NCBI GenBank assembly: GCA_902540235.1
Contig: CACBLI010000002.1
Location: 1-64,000 of the forward strand
DNA: 64,000 bases
Source of the DNA: an uncultured Pelagibacteraceae bacterium
GTDB lineage: Bacteria > Pseudomonadota > Alphaproteobacteria > Pelagibacterales > Pelagibacteraceae
Direction: 5' to 3'
Both the position numbers and the translations under genes were made by a program. Positions 22,969 through 37,261 of the stretch are shown here, in pieces. Below the pieces are notes generated by a model, which ran no database searches, had not been told where the DNA came from, and was given only the letters and a program-made list of their open reading frames with translations. Position 1 is the stretch's first letter. Each line of letters opens with the position of its first letter.

Positions 22969-23838
22969 ATGAGTTGTAATGTTGCTTTTATAGGTCTTGG
23001 TGTCATGGGTTATCCAATGGCTGGTTATATATCAAAAGGCGGTCACAATGTAACTGTTTTTAACAGAACAAAATCCAAAGCTGAGAAATGGATTAAAGAA
23101 TACAAAGGTAAAATGGCAGATACTCCAGCTGAGGCCGCAAAAGATGCTGAATACATTTTTACCTGTGTTGGAAATGATAATGACTTAAGAGAAGTAACTT
23201 TCGGAGACAACGGTGCATTTAAAAATATTAAAAAAGGTGCTGTTTATATTGATAACACAACTGCATCTGCAACAATTGCAAGAGAAATACATGCTTATGC
23301 AAAAAAAAATGGATTTGGAGCATTAGATGCGCCAGTCTCAGGAGGACAAGCTGGTGCAGAAAATGGAGCACTAACAGTGATGATTGGTGGTGATCAAGCT
23401 GACTTTGATAAAGCAAAAGATAAAATTGATTGTTATAGTAAGAAAATGAAATTACTTGGCGGTCCAGGGAACGGGCAGCTTGCAAAAATGGTTAATCAAA
23501 TTTGTATCGCAGGTTTAGTTCAGGGTTTATCTGAAGCTATCAATTTTGGAATGAAAGCTGGATTAAACATGGAAGATGTAATTGAAGTTATCTCAAAAGG
23601 CGCAGCTCAATCTTGGCAAATGGAAAATAGATATAAAACAATGATTGATGATAAGTTTGATTTTGGTTTTGCAGTTGATTGGATGAGAAAAGATTTAAAA
23701 ATTGCGATGGAAGAGGCAAAAAATAATGGTTCATTGTTACCTGTAACTGAGCTTGTTGATAAGTACTATGGGGAAGTTCAAGGAATGGGTGGTAATCGTT
23801 GGGATACTTCAAGCTTAATAAAAAGATTTAGAAAGTAA
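22969..23838 (+). CDS. 3-hydroxyisobutyrate dehydrogenase-family oxidoreductase
   Basis: The 289-residue enzyme belongs to the beta-hydroxyacid dehydrogenase family, which oxidises 3-hydroxyisobutyrate, tartronate, glycerate-type or related acids with NAD(P). The nucleotide motif FIGLGVMGYPMAGYI lies at residues 6-20. The substrate motif DAPVSGGQAGAENGAL is near residue 122, and the catalytic lysine is in GNGQLAKMVNQI (about residue 170). NRTKSKAEKW after the second strand favours NADP. It is followed after 3 bases by a flavin-binding oxidase-like gene. If the tautomerase 1.5 kb downstream makes malonate semialdehyde, this enzyme could reduce it to 3-hydroxypropionate, but that is speculation. 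Confidence 0.88.
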   Translation: MSCNVAFIGLGVMGYPMAGYISKGGHNVTVFNRTKSKAEKWIKEYKGKMADTPAEAAKDAEYIFTCVGNDNDLREVTFGDNGAFKNIKKGAVYIDNTTASATIAREIHAYAKKNGFGALDAPVSGGQAGAENGALTVMIGGDQADFDKAKDKIDCYSKKMKLLGGPGNGQLAKMVNQICIAGLVQGLSEAINFGMKAGLNMEDVIEVISKGAAQSWQMENRYKTMIDDKFDFGFAVDWMRKDLKIAMEEAKNNGSLLPVTELVDKYYGEVQGMGGNRWDTSSLIKRFRK

Positions 23839-23841
23839 AGT

Positions 23842-24441
23842 ATGCAACCAGCATACTATGAAGATTTAATAGAAATTCAAAATAAGTATTGGTCTATGTT
23901 AGATGATGCTGTAACCAACAGAAGTTCACCATTTAGAATTCCTGTTTTTATATGTACTCACCAAGATGAAGTTGATGGCAGAATTGTTGTTCTTAGAAAA
24001 TCAGATAGAGCAAATAATTTGTTACAATTTCATACTGATTTAAGATCACCAAAAGTAGATATTCTAAAAAAAAATAATAAAGCTTCACTAGTTTTTTATG
24101 ATAAAGAGGAAAAGATACAATTGAGAGTAAAAGTTGAATGTGAAGTAAATAATCAAAATTCCACAACAGAAGAGTCTTGGAAAAAAACCCAACATATAAG
24201 TCGAAGATGTTATTTAACTGATAGTCCCCCTGGGACTACATCGGAAAATCCAACATCTGGAATGATATCTAAATTAGAGGATTTCGATTTCACAATGGAG
24301 CAAAGTGAGGAAGGTTATAAAAACTTTACAGTGATTAAATGTAAAATAAAATCTATTGAATGGCTATATCTTGCTGCAAAAGGACATCGCAGAGCAAAAT
24401 TTGACTTAATCACAAAAAAAAATTTTTGGCTAGTTCCTTAA
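23842..24441 (+). CDS. Pyridoxamine 5'-phosphate oxidase-like flavin-binding protein
   Basis: A 199-residue protein with a split-barrel FMN-binding fold. GRIVVLRKSDRANNLLQFHTDLRSPKV at about residues 49-76 is the FMN phosphate-binding strand pair. LVFYDKEEKIQLRVKVEC and the C-terminal RRAKFDL resemble PdxH relatives of the Alr4036 type. It is not a certain PdxH, because the full PdxH C-terminal domain is shorter here. It lies 3 bases after the dehydrogenase gene and ends 1 base from the convergent tautomerase stop codon. Role in pyridoxal phosphate supply or in some other FMN-dependent oxidation is undecided. Confidence 0.78.
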   Translation: MQPAYYEDLIEIQNKYWSMLDDAVTNRSSPFRIPVFICTHQDEVDGRIVVLRKSDRANNLLQFHTDLRSPKVDILKKNNKASLVFYDKEEKIQLRVKVECEVNNQNSTTEESWKKTQHISRRCYLTDSPPGTTSENPTSGMISKLEDFDFTMEQSEEGYKNFTVIKCKIKSIEWLYLAAKGHRRAKFDLITKKNFWLVP

Positions 24442-24442
24442 A

Positions 24443-24883
24443 TTAACTTTCGATAGCTGATAATTTTTTCTTTAATTTTGATGGTAAGCTCGTAAACCAC
24501 TCATTTTCTTTTCCAGATTCTGGTAAAACAGCACCGTACTCGATCATCTGAGATGGAGGTAGGTCATTAATATAAACCCAAACTTGAGTTTCATCTAATT
24601 TTGAATTTTTTACTAATATATCCTTTAAATCTGAAATTAATTTGTCTTTCACTGCTTTTGATCTCCCAGCTCTTATTTGACCAAACAAAAAAATCGATGG
24701 TTCTTTAACTTTTTTTCCACCCATGAAATGATTATTCTTTTTTGTTTTGTTGAATATCACTTGGGCAAAATATGTATTAGCACCTGTTACAACATTATGA
24801 ACTTTAGTGATACCTTCAGCTAATTTTTTTTGTTGTTTTGATGAAATACTAAAGTTTGAGTTTGTAACTGTATAAGTTGGCAT
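24443..24883 (-). CDS. cis-3-chloroacrylate dehalogenase (cis-CaaD)-like tautomerase
   Basis: A 146-residue member of the tautomerase superfamily. After removal of Met the N terminus is the catalytic Pro1. All six residues that define cis-CaaD fall at the same numbers: Pro1, His28 (KVHNV), Arg70 and Arg73 (QIRAGRS), Tyr103 (WVYIN) and Glu114 (MIEYG). Known cis-CaaD hydrolyses cis-3-chloroacrylate to malonate semialdehyde. The related Cg10062 has the same six residues but hydrates propiolate better, so the natural substrate here is open. Downstream, on the same strand after a 23-base gap from its upstream neighbour, it follows the FecR gene's 3' side; the plus-strand dehydrogenase and flavoprotein genes converge on it. 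Confidence 0.85.
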   Translation of the reverse strand: MPTYTVTNSNFSISSKQQKKLAEGITKVHNVVTGANTYFAQVIFNKTKKNNHFMGGKKVKEPSIFLFGQIRAGRSKAVKDKLISDLKDILVKNSKLDETQVWVYINDLPPSQMIEYGAVLPESGKENEWFTSLPSKLKKKLSAIES

Positions 24884-24905: not shown

Positions 24906-26444
24906 TTATTCTAATGCTTTACCAATTACTACTGTTGAGCCTTCTAATCTTTCTATAGATTGAACATAAGCAGCTTCTCCTGCAGGAGCTGCACTTGCAT
25001 CATGAGCTCCTTCAAAGACAAAAGTCCCTAAACCTGTTAATCCAGACCCATCAACAGTAGTGAATTTACCATATTGAAATACCTCTTTAGCTGCATCTGA
25101 ATTGCTAGTGTCGTGGTTATACTTATCCATTAATTGCTCTGTTGTTCCAGAATTTAATGTTAAAGCACTGCTCTGCAGAGTATTTGCAACTCTAACTAAA
25201 GATGTACAAGAGTCGGCTGGGCATTCACCACCACCACTATCAATTAATTCATCTAAACTCGTTGTTCCATCTGTAACTAGTGCCTTAGGCACAGAAGCAA
25301 CAACTGGTATTGTGGTTAAAGTAACTGTAGGCGTTGTAAAGCTATAGTCTACTGTAGATGCTCCTTTTAATGTTAATTTTGAAAATACATCTGCACTTAT
25401 TTCTTTTTTATTAAAATTTACATATACTTTAGCACGACCCTGTTGAGTTGCTCCATCCTCAAAAACATTTTTATCAGAGCTATACGTTAGTCCATTTGAT
25501 CCAGTTGTAACTTTTGTCAGATCAAACCAACCAGAGTCGTATAAAATTGTATCTTGATCTAAAGTTCTCACGTAATTCTCATTATCTGTTACTATTATAT
25601 TTTCTTGCAACTGGTTCATGGCTACTGATATTTCTTTAGTATCAGATTCATTTGATAAGCTTGATAATATTTCTGAAGCACTTTCATCTGATTTTAAATC
25701 AAATTTTTCAGCAGTAATTATAATGTTATTTTTCAAATCTGCTGAATTTATTAAGTTTGTTGTTAAATTTTTAGAATCATCAACAATACTGCTAGAATTT
25801 ACAACTGAATGACTCAATGAACTAGATATTTCAGATATTATTTCTACATTAGTTGGTGATGATAATGAAACGACATTCGTAATTATTGCTTGGAAACCCG
25901 GATTACTTATTTTCGTAATATTTGAGCCATCTGTAATTTGAATATTACCAGGTATCATACCTAAAGTATTTTTTGGACCTGGGCCTAAAAGTACTACAGT
26001 GCTCTCATTTTTATCAGAATCTGATGAAACTAAAAATTCCGTACCTCTTACACCTAATGATCCATTAGGTATTTTTATTTCAAGATTATCAGGATTTTTT
26101 TCACTGATTTTTCCTGAGATAGTTTTTACAATCCCAGATTTAATATTTGTTACAAAATTTCCATTATTGGTTTCTTGATCATAAACAAAATCGTCTATTG
26201 TAAGCTCTGTATTCTCCCCGACTGTCATTACGGTTTCATCTAAAAATAAAATTTGAGCATTTGACTTAGTTTTTACATTTATTGTATCTCCATAATATAT
26301 TTTAGAGCCATTAGATAATTTTTCATTTTTTTGATTAGTAATCTCACCGACTGCAGCTCCAATTACACCAATGAATTCAAATCCTAAAGATTTAGAAGTT
26401 AAAAGTAATAAAAAGAATGAAGTTGTTAGAAATTTTTTAATCAT
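24906..26444 (-). CDS. Secreted FecR-domain protein
   Basis: The 512-residue product (from ATG at 26442-26444, MIKKFL) has a signal peptide ending near SLGFEF. A FecR domain follows at about residues 35-150, with IYYGDTINVKTKSNAQILFLDET and PNGSLGVRGTEFLVS. The middle is Ser/Asn-rich and probably helical. The C-terminal third is rich in beta strands and glycine, with a CPADSC pair and an end segment GTFVFEGAHDASAAPAG. A longer frame to 26471 exists, but this start overlaps the upstream gene's stop by 8 bases, as in a coupled operon. It pairs with the TPR/barrel gene upstream and may be its exported substrate. Confidence 0.8.
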   Translation of the reverse strand: MIKKFLTTSFFLLLLTSKSLGFEFIGVIGAAVGEITNQKNEKLSNGSKIYYGDTINVKTKSNAQILFLDETVMTVGENTELTIDDFVYDQETNNGNFVTNIKSGIVKTISGKISEKNPDNLEIKIPNGSLGVRGTEFLVSSDSDKNESTVVLLGPGPKNTLGMIPGNIQITDGSNITKISNPGFQAIITNVVSLSSPTNVEIISEISSSLSHSVVNSSSIVDDSKNLTTNLINSADLKNNIIITAEKFDLKSDESASEILSSLSNESDTKEISVAMNQLQENIIVTDNENYVRTLDQDTILYDSGWFDLTKVTTGSNGLTYSSDKNVFEDGATQQGRAKVYVNFNKKEISADVFSKLTLKGASTVDYSFTTPTVTLTTIPVVASVPKALVTDGTTSLDELIDSGGGECPADSCTSLVRVANTLQSSALTLNSGTTEQLMDKYNHDTSNSDAAKEVFQYGKFTTVDGSGLTGLGTFVFEGAHDASAAPAGEAAYVQSIERLEGSTVVIGKALE

Positions 26445-27801
26445 TAAAATTAATTCTTTTTGATATACCAATTGTTTTAAAGGATCTTTTTATTTCATAA
26501 CTTGATATGTTAGAATTTACATTAGATTCCTTGAAACTTAAAGTGTAAAAGAAATTGTTGTCTTTATTTATATTTTTTAAAAAAGGAAACAACTGGTTTA
26601 TATCCCCTGTTAGAGTTAAACTGGTAACTAAACTTTTGTCTTTTCTATCTTTTAAAGTTGAAACGGTAAATTTTTTTGCATCATAAATATTTGTTAAATG
26701 TGTGGCTGATGCCTTTAAAGTTCCAAATGGCAGGATTCTTGCAAACATTATATTTATTCCCCCTGAATTATAACTGTCGTATTTTTTTGAGTGGTCAATA
26801 TTACTATAAATAAGTTTGGAACTTACTTGGGTTTTGTTAGAAATATTATAATTTAATCTTGAACTAAAAGCATAAACTTCATTATTATTTAAATCACCTG
26901 CATCAACAAAAATTTGGTTTCCTTGAGCATCTAGTGGAGAAGGTTCAGAGTGATATTTACTGTTGGTATAACTAATTGCGTAATTTAAATTAAATTTATC
27001 ATTAAACAAATATGTGTTATTTAAACCAAAACCTTTACTTTGGTAATCTTCCTGCATTCTATAATTAAATTTATTATAATAAATATAAGGTGAGACATAA
27101 TGATTTTTAAATGCTTTAAAATAACTTAATGATCCAGAATGAATATCATTCTCACCTTTTAATTTTTTGTTATTTGTATTTAAATTTGATCCAAGATTCA
27201 TAAAAATTGAAGAACTATCACTAAGTATTTTCCCTAGCGTTAAAGAAGTACTTCTAGCAAAGGTTTTATCGTATCCTAATGTAAGTCTACTATCATTAGT
27301 TGGAAAAGGAACCTCAGAGTCAGTTGTGCCATTACTTTTAGCCAATTTGCCCGATTTAGTTCTGCCGCTGATATTGTTTTCTTCTGTTTGAGAATATTTA
27401 AGATCTACGTATGCTATCCACCTCGTTTTTTTTTTGTCTTCAAATTTTTTATCTGACAATAGTTCGGCTATTAAATTTTTTGTCTCATCGGATGTATTTG
27501 GATCGTTAAGCATTGTTTTGACCATAAAATCAACTTTAATTTTTGAATCCATCTTTAATAAAATTGATAACAAATATAATTTTATATCGGAGTTTTTTGG
27601 GTATAGAATACTAAGTCTTTCTAAAGTTGAAATTGTGGATTTAATATTTCCTGCTCTTTCTTGTTGTTTTGCGTAGTTTAAATTTAGCTCTAGGTCAGTC
27701 GGATTATCTAAAATTTCATTGTAAGTAACATTTGCATAGACTGATTTATTAAAAAAAGTAAGAAAAAAAAAAATTATAAAAAAATTTAATGATGTTTTCA
27801 T
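26437..27801 (-). CDS. TPR plus outer-membrane beta-barrel protein, Slam-like architecture
   Basis: A 454-residue protein with a signal peptide ending near SVYANV. A TPR-like helical region covers about residues 25-120 (NLNYAKQQERAGNIKS, ISTLERLSILYPKNSDIK). From about residue 130 to the end there are alternating amphipathic strands rich in Tyr, Asn and Ser, typical of an outer-membrane barrel (WIAYVDLKYSQTEEN, VSPYIYYNKFNY, LNYAISYTNSKYH). This N-TPR/C-barrel order resembles the DUF560/Slam translocators that move surface lipoproteins outward. It overlaps the FecR-domain gene by 8 bases, suggesting an exporter-substrate or scaffold pair. The Slam assignment is architectural inference, not a sequence match I can verify. 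Confidence 0.72.
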   Translation of the reverse strand: MKTSLNFFIIFFFLTFFNKSVYANVTYNEILDNPTDLELNLNYAKQQERAGNIKSTISTLERLSILYPKNSDIKLYLLSILLKMDSKIKVDFMVKTMLNDPNTSDETKNLIAELLSDKKFEDKKKTRWIAYVDLKYSQTEENNISGRTKSGKLAKSNGTTDSEVPFPTNDSRLTLGYDKTFARSTSLTLGKILSDSSSIFMNLGSNLNTNNKKLKGENDIHSGSLSYFKAFKNHYVSPYIYYNKFNYRMQEDYQSKGFGLNNTYLFNDKFNLNYAISYTNSKYHSEPSPLDAQGNQIFVDAGDLNNNEVYAFSSRLNYNISNKTQVSSKLIYSNIDHSKKYDSYNSGGINIMFARILPFGTLKASATHLTNIYDAKKFTVSTLKDRKDKSLVTSLTLTGDINQLFPFLKNINKDNNFFYTLSFKESNVNSNISSYEIKRSFKTIGISKRINFND

Positions 27802-27810
27802 TTTCAGGTA

Positions 27811-28323
27811 TTAAAAAATTGACTTAGAGTATTTTTTCCAATTATCCTGATAATGTTTTGTATTTTCCCAAACTGCTTTTTTTTCTTCCTCGGTCACTTC
27901 TCTCACTACTTTTCCTGGAGAGCCAACAACCAATGAATTATCTGGGATTACTTTATTTTCTGTAATTAAAGCTTTTGCACCAATAATACAATTTTTACCA
28001 ATTTTTGCATTATTCAGAATTACTGCACCTATGCCAATTAAACTATTATCTCCTACTGTGCATCCATGAAGCATAGCAAGATGTCCAACGGTTACATCTT
28101 TTCCAACTTTTAAAGGGCAGCCTGGGTCTGTATGCAAAACACATCCATCTTGTACGTTTGAACCTTCCCCAATATGAATATTTTCAATATCTCCTCTTAA
28201 CGTTGCATTAAACCAAATGCTAGTATTTTTTTCTAAAGTAACATCGCCGATTACTACTGCGTTTGGGGCAACCCAATTTTCCCCTGAGTTATTTGGTTTT
28301 TTATCTTTCAAATCGTAAAACAT
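27811..28323 (-). CDS. Gamma-carbonic anhydrase-family protein
   Basis: A 170-residue left-handed beta-helix protein with hexapeptide repeats. The three zinc-ligand histidines are visible in GCVLHTDPG and [36 protein letters not shown] is the family hallmark near residues 37-60. Relatives (YrdA, PaaY, CaiE) hydrate CO2 or act as thioesterases; many are of unknown activity. It is divergent from a thioredoxin-like gene with only 20 bases between start codons. The carbonic anhydrase activity is plausible but not guaranteed. Confidence 0.88.
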
Positions 28324-33626: not shown

Positions 33627-34667
33627 TTAGTGATTTATCGATGATGAGAAATTCCAGGAACAATCAAAACTAGGTATGTAAACTCTAGATAAACTAGTAT
33701 TTCCAAAATGATGATTAAATACATTTAACCAATTTTCAACTTGAAGAGGTTTTTTATCTTGGCTGCCAACTTGAGCGGTAATAACTCCTTTAGGTTTGAG
33801 TATTCTAACTAAAGAGTCCATATTTTTTGCAGCGAGATCAATGCAAAACTGGTCATCATTTAAATCTACAAAAATATGATCATATGTATCTTCATTCACT
33901 GTTTTTATGCTTTCAAAAGCATCACCCCAGACACATTTTACAGAATTTTTTTCTGTAGCTTTTTTTCCTATATCACCAAGATGTTTGTTACAAACTTCAA
34001 CAACTTCTGGATCTAATTCATACCAATCTATAAAGTTAAACTTTTTTGAAATACATTCTCTTGCAACACCGCCATCCCCACCACCAATTATTGCAGCTCT
34101 CTCTTTTTTTTTGTTTAATTTTAAACCAGCACCAACAAAAGTTGAGCTATACAAATGTTCATCTGAAGCAGCTACTTGAATTTCACCATCAATAAATAAA
34201 GATTTTCCAAACTGCTCCAATTCTAAAATTTCTATATGTTGACCAACTTTTGATTTAAAGTCTTCTAAAACTTCATTTACAACATACGATTTTTGTAATC
34301 CTGGTGAACTATAGATATCGTGGTAAAGAGATCTTGTATCTCTATTAAATTCTTTTTTAACTACACGTCTATGTTCAAATTCTTTTTTAACAATATCTAT
34401 TGCCACTGATGGACTTATTTTTCCACAGGTAAAAAAATCAAAACTAATTATTCCTTTTTCTGGAAATGTATGAAAGCTGATGTGACTTTCAGCTAATAAA
34501 GCTAAAATTGTAAAGCCCTGAGGTTCAAATTTATATTTAGAAATATTAAGAATAGTTACATCTGCTGCTTTAGCAATTTTATTTATGACTTTTTCAAAAA
34601 CTGAAGGATCGTACTCTTTTGTAGTACCTATAATATCTAAAGTAATATGCTCCCCAACTTTAATCAT
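33627..34667 (-). CDS. Fused S-adenosylmethionine decarboxylase-spermidine synthase
   Basis: A 346-residue two-domain enzyme. The N-terminal part, residues 1-115, is a class 1 AdoMetDC: the self-cleaving pair Glu60-Ser61 lies in LLAESHISFHTFPEKG, with His66 and Cys81 (FFTCG) also in place. The C-terminal part, residues 125-346, is spermidine synthase, with EIQVAASDEHLYS, the decarboxy-SAM site IIGGGDGGVAREC, GDAFESI and the catalytic Asp in FVDLNDD. Together they convert SAM plus putrescine (or another diamine) to a polyamine and release methylthioadenosine. Normally these are separate genes. Downstream of the MTA salvage genes with a 1-base gap, it closes the cycle. No ornithine decarboxylase is in the window. 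Confidence 0.92.
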   Translation of the reverse strand: MIKVGEHITLDIIGTTKEYDPSVFEKVINKIAKAADVTILNISKYKFEPQGFTILALLAESHISFHTFPEKGIISFDFFTCGKISPSVAIDIVKKEFEHRRVVKKEFNRDTRSLYHDIYSSPGLQKSYVVNEVLEDFKSKVGQHIEILELEQFGKSLFIDGEIQVAASDEHLYSSTFVGAGLKLNKKKERAAIIGGGDGGVARECISKKFNFIDWYELDPEVVEVCNKHLGDIGKKATEKNSVKCVWGDAFESIKTVNEDTYDHIFVDLNDDQFCIDLAAKNMDSLVRILKPKGVITAQVGSQDKKPLQVENWLNVFNHHFGNTSLSRVYIPSFDCSWNFSSSINH

Positions 34668-34668
34668 C

Positions 34669-35325
34669 TTACCCTTTTTTATAGTTTTTAGCTTTATCTA
34701 AAACTTTTTTCATTTCTTCAAATGATAGAATTTTAGGTTGTCCTAATCTTAAAGCAATAGTGTATTGATGACAAATATTTTCTATCTCTTGTGCAAGTTC
34801 AAAGGCTTGCTCTAAATTTTTTCCAAAAGCAACCTGGCCGTGATTAGACATTAGACATGCAGATCTATTTTCTAAAGCTTTGATAACATTTTTAGATAAC
34901 TCTTCTGTTCCAAAAGTAGCGTATTCTGCACATTTAATGTCATCTCCGCCTGCTAGAGCAACCATATAATGAAATGGTGGAATTGGTTTTCCATGTGAGG
35001 ATACAGCTGTTGCGTGTGGAGAGTGAGCATGAACAATAGCCTGTGCTTCTTTTTTATTTACATAAATATCTCGATGAAATCTCCATTCTGATGATGGCTT
35101 GTTGATTGAATCATTTTTCTCCTCTAATTCATTTAAACCCATGAAAACGATATCATTAGCTTTTAGAGTTTCATATTTTTTTCCTGAAGGAGTAATTAAA
35201 TATCCCTCTATATCATCTTCTATTCCCCTTAATGATATATTGCCCGACCTAAGAGGTGAGAGATTTGTAGAATTTAATTTTAATGAATATTCAATAATCT
35301 GATTTCTTTTATCTAAGTTCTTCAT
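34669..35325 (-). CDS. Class II aldolase, probable 5-methylthioribulose-1-phosphate aldolase
   Basis: A 218-residue class II aldolase/adducin-fold protein. Zinc ligands appear in IVHAHSPHATAV (two His) and MSNHGQVAFG (third His). The catalytic acid is in PSSEWRFHRDIY. The opening RSGNISLRG and TPSGKKYE bind phosphate. L-fuculose-phosphate aldolase relatives of this size form the DHAP shunt, cleaving methylthioribulose-1-P to DHAP and methylthioacetaldehyde after MtnP and MtnA. MtnB, a dehydratase of the same fold, would be the alternative, but mtnC, mtnD and mtnK are missing here. It overlaps mtnA by 4 bases and lies 1 base before the speD-speE gene. Confidence 0.82.
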   Translation of the reverse strand: MKNLDKRNQIIEYSLKLNSTNLSPLRSGNISLRGIEDDIEGYLITPSGKKYETLKANDIVFMGLNELEEKNDSINKPSSEWRFHRDIYVNKKEAQAIVHAHSPHATAVSSHGKPIPPFHYMVALAGGDDIKCAEYATFGTEELSKNVIKALENRSACLMSNHGQVAFGKNLEQAFELAQEIENICHQYTIALRLGQPKILSFEEMKKVLDKAKNYKKG

Positions 35326-36392
35326 TTGAACAATTCTTTAAGTCCTTTTTCTGAAGCTTCACATACCCCTTTTTCGGTAATTAATCCCGTAACATATTTT
35401 GCTGGGGTCACATCAAAAGCTAAATTCATAGCTTTACTTTTTTTTGGATAAATTTGTATTTTTTTTATATCTCCTTTTTCATCTAAACCTTCAACATGAG
35501 ATAATTCATCTGAATTTCTCTCCTCTATTGGAATATCTTTATGATTTTTTATATTCCAATCAATAGTTGAACTTGGTAGTGCAACATAAAAAGGAATATT
35601 ATTATCATGAGCTGCCAGTGCTTTAAGATAAGTTCCAACTTTATTACAAACATCTCCATTGGCTAGAGTTCTATCTGTTCCAACAATACACATATCAACT
35701 TCACCTCTTTGCATTAATATGCCACCTGTATTATCTGCAATGATTGTGTTCTTAATTCCTTCCTCATTTAACTCATAAGAAGTTAGATTTGCTCCTTGAT
35801 TTCTTGGCCTAGTTTCATCTGCCCAAACATGAACTGGAATTCCTTTTTTATGAGCATGATAAATTGGAGAAGTTGCTGTTCCCCAATTAATTGTTGCAAG
35901 CCATCCTGCATTACAATGAGTTAATATATTAACTGTATCTTTTTTTTTATTATAAATTTCCTCTATAATTTTAAGACCATTTAATCCTATATTTTCACAA
36001 AATTTTATGTCCTCCTCACAAATATCTTTTGCTTCATTCAAAGCTATTTCTAAGATTTTATCACTATTAAAGCCTGATAATTTTTTCATCATTCTATCAA
36101 CAGACCACTTTAAATTTATTGCTGTTGGTCTTGAACTAATTAAATCTTCTGCAGATTTCTTTAAAAATGATTGATCATTATTTTCAATAATTGCTAAAAC
36201 CAAGCCATAAGCAGCAGTTGCTCCTATTAGTGGTGCGCCTCTTACTTCCATTACTTTAATTGCATTTATTGCATTCTTAACGGTTTTAAGATCTTTAATT
36301 ATAAATTGGTGAGGAAGTTTTGTTTGATCAATGATTTTTACAATATTATTTTCAAACCAGATAGTACGATATTCTTTTCCTTCTATTCTCAT
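35322..36392 (-). CDS. mtnA: S-methyl-5-thioribose-1-phosphate isomerase
   Basis: Isomerises methylthioribose-1-P to methylthioribulose-1-P in methionine/MTA salvage. The 356-residue protein has the MtnA pattern. MEVRGAPLIGATAAYG lies at about residue 48, and the catalytic cysteine is in THCNAGWLATINWGTA (about residue 160). The catalytic Asp is in IVGTDRTLANGDVCNKVGTY (about residue 240) and the C-terminal FDVTPAKYVTGLITEKG ends the core. Confusion with eIF2B-like sugar isomerases is unlikely because of these residues and the genes around it. Overlaps of 4 bases with both mtnP and the aldolase gene indicate coupled translation. Confidence 0.95.
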   Translation of the reverse strand: MRIEGKEYRTIWFENNIVKIIDQTKLPHQFIIKDLKTVKNAINAIKVMEVRGAPLIGATAAYGLVLAIIENNDQSFLKKSAEDLISSRPTAINLKWSVDRMMKKLSGFNSDKILEIALNEAKDICEEDIKFCENIGLNGLKIIEEIYNKKKDTVNILTHCNAGWLATINWGTATSPIYHAHKKGIPVHVWADETRPRNQGANLTSYELNEEGIKNTIIADNTGGILMQRGEVDMCIVGTDRTLANGDVCNKVGTYLKALAAHDNNIPFYVALPSSTIDWNIKNHKDIPIEERNSDELSHVEGLDEKGDIKKIQIYPKKSKAMNLAFDVTPAKYVTGLITEKGVCEASEKGLKELFK

Positions 36393-37261
36393 TTATTTAA
36401 AACTCTACCAGCGACTGTTTTGAGCTTATCTATCGTTTTTTTAGTTCTTTTTTCAGGAGAGGTTATTATTGCTACATCTAAACAATTGTTAGTTGGATCG
36501 TTTGGATCAATATGATTTTCAAAATTTTTTATTAAATTTTTTATCATGTTTTTAGCTTTTGCTGCATTTCCTAAAAGAACTTTTATTACTTGTTGAACAT
36601 CAACATTTGCATGATCTGGATGCCAACAATCATAATCCGTAACCATTGAAACAGACGCGTATCTTATCTCTGCTTCTCTTGCCAGTTTTGCTTCAGGCAT
36701 GTTAGTCATACCAATTACATCTGCCTTCCACGATCTATATAAATTTGACTCTGCTAATGTTGAAAATTGTGGTCCTTCCATAACGACATATGTTCCATTT
36801 CTTTGATATTCAATTTTTTCTTTTTTAATTGCCTCCTCACAAGCATTCATTAAACCATTAGATGTTGGATGTGCCATCGAGACATGTGCAACAATTTCAT
36901 TATCGAAAAATGTTTTCTCTCTGGCAAAAGTACGATCAATAAACTGATCAACAATAACAAATTTTCCTGGCGGTAAATTCTCTTTTAAAGAGCCAACAGC
37001 AGAAACTGATACAATATCTGTGACGCCTAATTGTTTAAGAGCATCTATATTAGCTCTAAAATTAATTCTTGAAGGAGATATATAGTGTCCTCTTCCATGC
37101 CTTGGTAAAAAATACACCTCTTTATTGTTATAATTAGTTTTTAAAATTTGGTCTGACGGTTTCCCCCAAGGTGTATTTAAATCTAATAATTCTCTTTTTT
37201 TAAACTCCTCAACATCATAAAGTCCACTACCACCTATGATTGCTAATTTATTTATTGTCAT
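36389..37261 (-). CDS. mtnP: 5'-methylthioadenosine phosphorylase
   Basis: Splits MTA with phosphate into adenine and methylthioribose-1-P. The 290-residue protein begins LAIIGGSGLYDVE (phosphate loop). It continues with FLPRHGRGHYISPSRINFRANIDALK, MEGPQFSTLAESNLYRSW (substrate base/ribose), GMTNMPEAKLAREAE and TDYDCWH, all as in MtnP. The segment MTNMPEA with TDYD favours methylthioadenosine and adenine rather than guanosine. It is the first gene of the MTA module and is divergent from apt with 42 bases between starts. Confidence 0.94.
   Translation of the reverse strand: MTINKLAIIGGSGLYDVEEFKKRELLDLNTPWGKPSDQILKTNYNNKEVYFLPRHGRGHYISPSRINFRANIDALKQLGVTDIVSVSAVGSLKENLPPGKFVIVDQFIDRTFAREKTFFDNEIVAHVSMAHPTSNGLMNACEEAIKKEKIEYQRNGTYVVMEGPQFSTLAESNLYRSWKADVIGMTNMPEAKLAREAEIRYASVSMVTDYDCWHPDHANVDVQQVIKVLLGNAAKAKNMIKNLIKNFENHIDPNDPTNNCLDVAIITSPEKRTKKTIDKLKTVAGRVLNK

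What the first reader, a model, noticed from the sequence alone, without database searches (positions are those of the whole stretch)
24443..24883. Tautomerase with all six cis-CaaD catalytic residues in a SAR11-type genome
Pro1, His28, Arg70, Arg73, Tyr103 and Glu114 fall at exactly the numbers known from cis-3-chloroacrylic acid dehalogenase. Halogenated C3 acids occur in seawater, and the product malonate semialdehyde could be used by a hydroxyacid dehydrogenase nearby. Cg10062, with the same six residues, is a poor dehalogenase but a propiolate hydratase, so the natural substrate is open.
Basis: partly seen in the sequence, partly recalled or inferred. Interest (0 to 1): 0.62.

Follow-up and report, generated by a model that had tools for sequence, protein, structure and literature searches.

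The report
Ocean relative of dehalogenase cis-CaaD
A small enzyme in an abundant ocean bacterium keeps all the catalytic residues of a pesticide-degrading dehalogenase but has different pocket residues, so it most likely adds water to a natural unsaturated acid rather than removing halogen, which can be tested directly.

Summary
Window 24443-24883 (-) encodes a 146-aa cis-CaaD-subgroup protein with Pro1, His28, Arg70, Arg73, Tyr103 and Glu114 at those exact numbers, invariant in 89 of 89 distinct SAR11 proteins compared and under purifying selection.

The dehalogenase reading is only partly supported. In 67 non-redundant rows (window included), position 34 is Ala and 38 is Phe in 67 of 67; T34 occurs only in cis-CaaD, L38 only in cis-CaaD and Cg10062. 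Arg117 of both is Ala here. An exclusive SAR11+Cg10062 clade is rejected (p 0.021).

The neighbouring dehydrogenase is convergent and occurs in 169 of 197 SAR11-family genomes, against 43 of 197 for this gene. Among 114 distinct SAR11 copies I count nine gene settings, one between mtnP and mtnA, at junctions that in other genomes take other genes. Context therefore names no substrate.

Best reading: a Pro1-dependent hydratase of a small unsaturated acid, substrate unknown. New member of a known kind.

The parts
24443..24883 (-). cis-CaaD-subgroup tautomerase-superfamily protein, 146 aa, P1/H28/R70/R73/Y103/E114; loop 32-38 T-G-A-N-T-Y-F; A117
23842..24441 (+). FMN/PPOX-like flavoprotein, convergent with the tautomerase (1 bp between the two)
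   Evidence: Pfam Pyridox_oxase_2
22969..23838 (+).
24906..27801 (-). FecR-domain protein and a second ORF without Pfam match (weak BcsC match in NCBIfam), lying between the gamma-carbonic-anhydrase-like gene and the tautomerase in only part of the relatives
27811..28323 (-). gamma-carbonic-anhydrase / hexapeptide family protein (below cut-off); its relative is the immediate upstream gene in 53 of 73 distinct copies of this setting, mostly 1-5 bp away
33627..37261 (-). mtnP - mtnA - class II aldolase (Ald2/FucA-like) - SpeD/SpeE fusion: methylthioadenosine salvage operon; in most tautomerase-bearing genomes seen of SAR11 genus g4 the tautomerase lies between mtnP and mtnA of this operon

Best explanation
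[quoted passage not shown] It adds water across a small alpha,beta-unsaturated (acetylenic, allenic or 3-substituted acrylic) C3-C4 carboxylate. Arg70, Arg73 and His28 would hold the carboxylate, Glu114 and Tyr103' of the neighbouring subunit would activate water for attack at C3, and Pro1 would be the acid that protonates C2. The product would be malonate semialdehyde or a related beta-oxo acid, possibly decarboxylated on to an aldehyde. It is not a specialised haloacrylate dehalogenase. It belongs to the natural Ala34/Phe38 stock near which cis-CaaD (Thr34/Leu38) branches. Shown here: family, residues, their conservation, loop differences, selection, tree. Inferred from the family: location, trimer, reaction chemistry. 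Unknown: natural substrate. Malonate semialdehyde, if made, could be used by the genome's MmsA-type dehydrogenase.
For: All six residues are kept in 89/89 distinct SAR11 proteins, the window's included (the script stopped on an error after printing these counts). H28, R70, R73, Y103 and E114 are kept in 60/60 non-redundant ingroup rows, and Pro1 in 58/60. Tyr103 is kept in 60/60 ingroup but 0/7 outgroup rows; the known homologue Linker 1, which lacks this Tyr, has no cis-CaaD activity (PMC5818174, passages). So the water-activating pair is being conserved. dN/dS is 0.02-0.24 in 17 pairs, though dS is above 1 in most. PDB entries of variants of both nearest characterised enzymes with covalent intermediates of acetylenecarboxylic acid hydration exist (titles). 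MmsA-type dehydrogenase in the genome, 702.9 bits against cut-off 448.5.
Against: No activity is measured for any member of this A34/F38 clade that I know of. The loop (N35, F38, H51, M53) matches neither characterised enzyme, so the substrate may lie outside the known set. Gene context does not fix a pathway. No MSAD-family (Tautomerase_2) match in the genome. Pfam's general Tautomerase model also scores above its cut-off (36 against 22 bits), so tautomerase activity is not excluded. The structure model was poor (pLDDT 64), so pocket geometry was not checked.
Confidence: 0.6

Rival explanations
1. A true cis-3-haloacrylic acid dehalogenase that feeds on halogenated C3 acids of marine algae.
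For: Six residues identical. Halogenated acrylic acids reported in Asparagopsis (PMC8948725, passages). A type II haloacid dehalogenase-family protein lies in the same genome, 203 bits against cut-off 125.4. An exclusive SAR11+cis-CaaD clade is not rejected (p 0.145), while SAR11+Cg10062 is (p 0.021).
Against: Thr34, found only in cis-CaaD, is Ala here and in 67/67 rows; L38 is F; R117 is A. Recalled, not from a call: T34A of cis-CaaD shifts it toward Cg10062-like behaviour. No MSAD-type match. Cg10062 (CgX) has the same six residues yet is described as an inefficient cis-CaaD (PMC5818174, passages).
Confidence: 0.1
2. Mainly a phenylpyruvate-type or other enol-keto tautomerase, with hydratase residues kept for another reason.
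For: Phenylenolpyruvate tautomerase activity was detected in every enzyme tested along the 4-OT to cis-CaaD path, including cis-CaaD and CgX/Cg10062 (PMC5818174, passages). Pfam Tautomerase (PF01361) scores 36 bits, over its cut-off of 22. The five NCBIfam matches are to 4-OT-type tautomerases.
Against: All five NCBIfam tautomerase matches fall below their curated cut-offs, best 31 against 56.9. Activity with phenylenolpyruvate falls along the path toward cis-CaaD. Conservation of Y103 and E114 is not needed for tautomerisation (inference).
Confidence: 0.15
3. A working part of methylthioadenosine/5'-deoxyadenosine salvage (DHAP shunt), as its place between mtnP and mtnA in SAR11 genus g4 suggests.
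For: mtnP-[4 to 6 bp]-tautomerase-[mostly 4-bp overlap]-mtnA, then ald2 and speDE, in 25 of 114 distinct SAR11 copies. The window has the same mtn operon about 9 kb away on the same strand.
Against: Association of tautomerase and mtnA across 197 genomes is not significant (37/43 against 113/154, Fisher p 0.106). Four tautomerase-bearing genomes at least 95% complete (G093, G143, G032, G048) lack mtnA. The same operon's junctions take other genes in other genomes. The other 89 of 114 copies are elsewhere. The listing for tautomerase + methylthioadenosine gave 6 papers, none on this by title (listing only).
Confidence: 0.07

Closest known systems
cis-CaaD, cis-3-chloroacrylic acid dehalogenase (PDB 2flt/2flz)
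   Same: Six catalytic residues; gap-free alignment over 1-119; T32, G33, A39-Q40-V41, G54, G55; an exclusive clade with SAR11 is not rejected (p 0.145)
   Different: 32.4% identity; A34 for T34, N35 for Q35, F38 for L38, H51 for V51, A117 for R117
Cg10062 (PDB 3n4g), poor cis-CaaD of unknown biological role
   Same: Six catalytic residues; A34; best PDB hit by sequence, 35.4% identity
   Different: Loop T-G-A-N-T-Y-F against A-H-A-P-K-Y-L; G54-G55 against A-A; A117 against R117; an exclusive SAR11+Cg10062 clade is rejected, p 0.021
N1 (PDB 7m58), cis-CaaD-family linker protein
   Same: Sequence hit E 1e-24; entry title names it a cis-CaaD family member
   Different: Residue-level comparison not made here, so whether it belongs to the A34/F38 clade is open
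Linker 1 (PDB 5uif)
   Same: His28, two Arg and Glu of the cis-CaaD set (PMC5818174, passages); sequence hit E 4.4e-14
   Different: Has Ala where Tyr103 stands, and no cis-CaaD activity; the SAR11 protein has Tyr103

Membership tests
cis-CaaD subgroup of the tautomerase superfamily | Pfam Tautomerase_3 over its cut-off; fused double beta-alpha-beta length | tested here: met
   46.5 bits against 25.7, residues 1-130 of 146
cis-CaaD subgroup of the tautomerase superfamily | Pro1, His28, Arg70, Arg73, Tyr103, Glu114 | tested here: met
cis-CaaD subgroup of the tautomerase superfamily | Homotrimer with Tyr103 supplied by a neighbouring subunit | not testable with these tools
   only a poor monomer model was obtained
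cis-CaaD proper (haloacrylate dehalogenase) | Loop of cis-CaaD (T34, L38) and R117 | tested here: not met
   A34, F38, A117
cis-CaaD proper (haloacrylate dehalogenase) | Pathway partner MSAD in the genome | tested here: not met
   0 matches to PF14552 in G000, which is rated 90% complete; that PF14552 covers MSAD is recalled
cis-CaaD proper (haloacrylate dehalogenase) | Efficient, cis-specific dehalogenation | not testable with these tools
   needs enzyme assay
Cg10062-type enzyme | Shares an exclusive clade with Cg10062 | tested here: not met
   AU test p 0.021 against a clade of 18 SAR11 rows, L162, L163 and Cg10062; long branches are a caveat
4-OT / 2-hydroxymuconate tautomerase | NCBIfam model over its curated cut-off | tested here: not met
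   best 31 bits against 56.9; Pfam's general Tautomerase model PF01361 is over its cut-off, 36 against 22
MSAD | Asp37 in the active site | tested here: not met
   residue 37 is Tyr; Asp37 as named in PMC11641302 (passages)

The most novel reading that the evidence does not exclude
The Ala34/Phe38 clade, spread over SAR11 and Burkholderiales plasmids, is a natural hydratase family for a non-halogenated unsaturated C3 acid (an acetylenic or allenic acid, or even 3-(methylthio)acrylate giving methanethiol plus malonate semialdehyde or acetaldehyde). cis-CaaD arose from this stock by a few pocket changes such as A34T. The SAR11 gene would then be both an unrecognised carbon or sulfur step in abundant ocean bacteria and a key to the origin of a textbook dehalogenase.
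Probability: 0.12. Interest if true: 0.72.

Novelty: new member of a known kind. Interest (0 to 1): 0.38.

Why it matters
cis-CaaD is a standard example of an enzyme adapted to a synthetic pesticide (recalled), and the natural activity it came from is not known to me. A conserved clade that keeps its whole catalytic set but carries a uniform different residue at position 34 (67 of 67 rows) gives a small, testable set of changes between a natural enzyme and the dehalogenase. If the SAR11 enzyme proves an efficient hydratase of a natural acid, it also names an unrecognised reaction in abundant marine bacteria.

Tried and rejected
Partner by neighbourhood: HIBADH/PPOX rejected (convergent; HIBADH is widespread without the tautomerase). 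mtnP/mtnA operon partner downgraded. An ExaC-type acetaldehyde dehydrogenase with DUF779 lies next to the gene in one SAR11 group (L078) and near it on a Cupriavidus plasmid (L112, ExaC 953.8 bits against 900), and GntG-type aldolases lie near it on two Burkholderiales plasmids (L112, L114). This suggested an aldehyde product. But in SAR11 the spot between the tautomerase and PPOX also takes methyltransferase-like and other genes, so I count it as weak evidence, not as nothing.

Viral carriage: no relative in viral contigs; 32 stretches matched a pattern, none confirmed.

Structure: the model was poor (pLDDT 64, pTM 0.58). Foldseek hits were led by cis-CaaD and Cg10062 entries, but with TM 0.54-0.58 to the query and rmsd 11-13 A in the top 28 rows, so no geometry was drawn from it.

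Co-occurrence with mtnA: not significant. The tests involve long branches (cis-CaaD 1.35) and are a caution, not proof. Rows dropped: one search used 41 of the 69 rows (SAR11 thinned; L109 and L170 left out).

Full report
OBSERVATION. The ORF at 24443-24883 on the minus strand is 146 aa from ATG. Counted without Met, P1, H28, R70, R73, Y103 and E114 are all present. Pfam Tautomerase_3 matches at 5.6e-12, above cut-off; the general Tautomerase model is also above its cut-off. The best solved structure is Cg10062 (3n4g, 6.3e-27); N1 (7m58, 1e-24) and cis-CaaD (2flt, 2.1e-23) follow. Identity is 35.4% to Cg10062 and 32.4% to cis-CaaD. The genome is SAR11: 99% identical proteins lie in records titled uncultured Pelagibacteraceae. 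It is the only Tautomerase_3 match in the window's genome.

CONSERVATION. A scan of genome contigs confirmed 149 relatives, of which the best 80 were kept. In a sample of 197 genomes of the same family, 43 have the gene; among the 78 of good quality, 20 do. From 101 loci, 89 distinct proteins (the window's included) were compared, and all six residues are invariant in 89 of 89 (that script stopped on an error after printing the counts). T32, A34, N35, F38, H51, M53, G54 and G55 are also invariant there, G33 in 88. Position 117, Arg in both cis-CaaD and Cg10062, is A in 64, E in 19, T in 4, S in 1 and V in 1. dN/dS against 17 relatives is 0.02-0.24; dS is above 1 in most pairs, so the values are rough, but the gene is under purifying selection.

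POCKET. Of 174 loci with a long enough protein, 67 non-redundant rows were aligned. Seven are a distant outgroup; 60 are ingroup, 44 of these from SAR11. H28, R70, R73, Y103 and E114 are kept in 60 of 60 and P1 in 58 of 60. Tyr103 is absent from all 7 outgroup rows. Position 34 is Ala and position 38 Phe in 67 of 67. T34 is thus found only in cis-CaaD, and L38 only in cis-CaaD and Cg10062, in this set. Arg117 is found in 4 of the 60 ingroup rows. Linker 1, a homologue with Ala in place of Tyr103, has no cis-CaaD activity (PMC5818174, passages). I recall, from no call, that the T34A variant of cis-CaaD becomes more Cg10062-like. A crystal entry of cis-CaaD T34A exists (title), and a simulation study calls T34 a key residue (PMC11641302, passages). 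The SAR11 enzyme is therefore expected to be a hydratase and a poor dehalogenase. This is inference.

TREE. With 69 rows, Cg10062 (with L115 and L167) falls outside the branch that holds SAR11, the Burkholderiales rows and cis-CaaD (97/82). In a thinned tree of 41 rows the same split has 91/79, and cis-CaaD is a long branch (1.35) with a group made mostly of Burkholderiales plasmid rows (87/93). Holding 18 SAR11 rows, L162, L163 and Cg10062 as one clade is rejected (p 0.021); holding the same rows and cis-CaaD is not (p 0.145). Long branches make this a guide only.

NEIGHBOURHOOD. Its close relatives (E up to 1e-90) occur in 169 of 197 family genomes, so it does not track the tautomerase (43 of 197). 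In the commonest setting the immediate upstream gene is a gamma-carbonic-anhydrase family gene in 53 of 73 distinct copies, mostly 1-5 bp away. In the window and part of the others, a FecR-domain gene and a second ORF lie between.

NINE SETTINGS. Of 143 SAR11 loci there are 114 distinct tautomerase DNA sequences. By a rule on the nearest genes I sort them into: gCA^PPOX 73, mtnP^mtnA 25, SBP^trmB 6, fabI 4, SDR-DUF1330 2, and four single cases. The sample leans to the window's genus, and copies within a genus are not independent. In genus g4 the gene mostly stands between mtnP and mtnA, 4-6 bp after the one and mostly overlapping the other by 4 bp, followed by a class II aldolase and a SpeD/SpeE fusion. 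This is the gene set of the DHAP shunt (PMC10986504, passages; the R. rubrum route in PMC6302742, passages). The window has the same operon at 33627-37261 without the tautomerase in it. Of 14 mtn stretches without the tautomerase between mtnP and mtnA, 12 have the two overlapping by 1 or 4 bp, one by 11, and one (L198) has a 360-aa ORF there with no match to the other inserts tested; four stretches have other ORFs between mtnA and ald2. mtnA occurs in 37 of 43 tautomerase-bearing genomes and 113 of 154 others (Fisher p 0.106). I conclude that the gene is an accessory one that settles at operon junctions, and that the mtn setting is no firm pointer to function.

OTHER GENOME PARTS. No Tautomerase_2 (MSAD-type) match. 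MmsA-type dehydrogenase above cut-off. ExaC-like aldehyde dehydrogenase at 861.6 bits, below its cut-off of 900. Halogenated acrylic acids are named for the alga Asparagopsis (PMC8948725, passages). The held library gave 3 papers with tautomerase and SAR11, none by title about this gene (listing only).

MECHANISM. Shown: family, residues, conservation, loop. Inferred: carboxylate held by R70, R73 and H28; water activated by E114 and Y103'; Pro1 as acid; product a beta-oxo acid. The roles rest on cis-CaaD and Cg10062 work (passages; PDB titles; further detail recalled).

VERDICT. A new member of a known kind, ordinary in chemistry type, of moderate interest because it lies in the natural stock near which cis-CaaD branches and because the decisive assay is simple.

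Noticed in passing
   Followed up: partly
window 33627-37261 (-): SAR11 operon mtnP-mtnA-class II aldolase-SpeD/SpeE fusion: a likely DHAP-shunt route from methylthioadenosine, with AdoMet decarboxylase and spermidine synthase in one 346-aa protein.
   Followed up: partly
L198 (G144), L183, L144, L184, L195: The mtn operon junctions in SAR11 genus g4 take different extra ORFs (such as 360, 288, 308 and 376 aa) besides the tautomerase.
   Followed up: partly
L119 6460-6747, L067 6463-6753: A DUF1330 protein next to the tautomerase in two different SAR11 settings.
   Followed up: no
L035 4917-5999 and relatives; L138 1789-2919 (-): A DLH-like alpha/beta hydrolase lies 1 bp upstream of the tautomerase in several same-genus loci, and a protein about 34% identical to it lies in the g4 mtn operon.
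   Followed up: no
window 24906-27801 (-): A FecR-domain protein and a second ORF without a Pfam match lie between gCA and the tautomerase in only part of the relatives.
   Followed up: no
L202 (G000:C6:28456-29034): A type II haloacid dehalogenase-family protein in the window's genome, 203 bits against cut-off 125.4.
   Followed up: no
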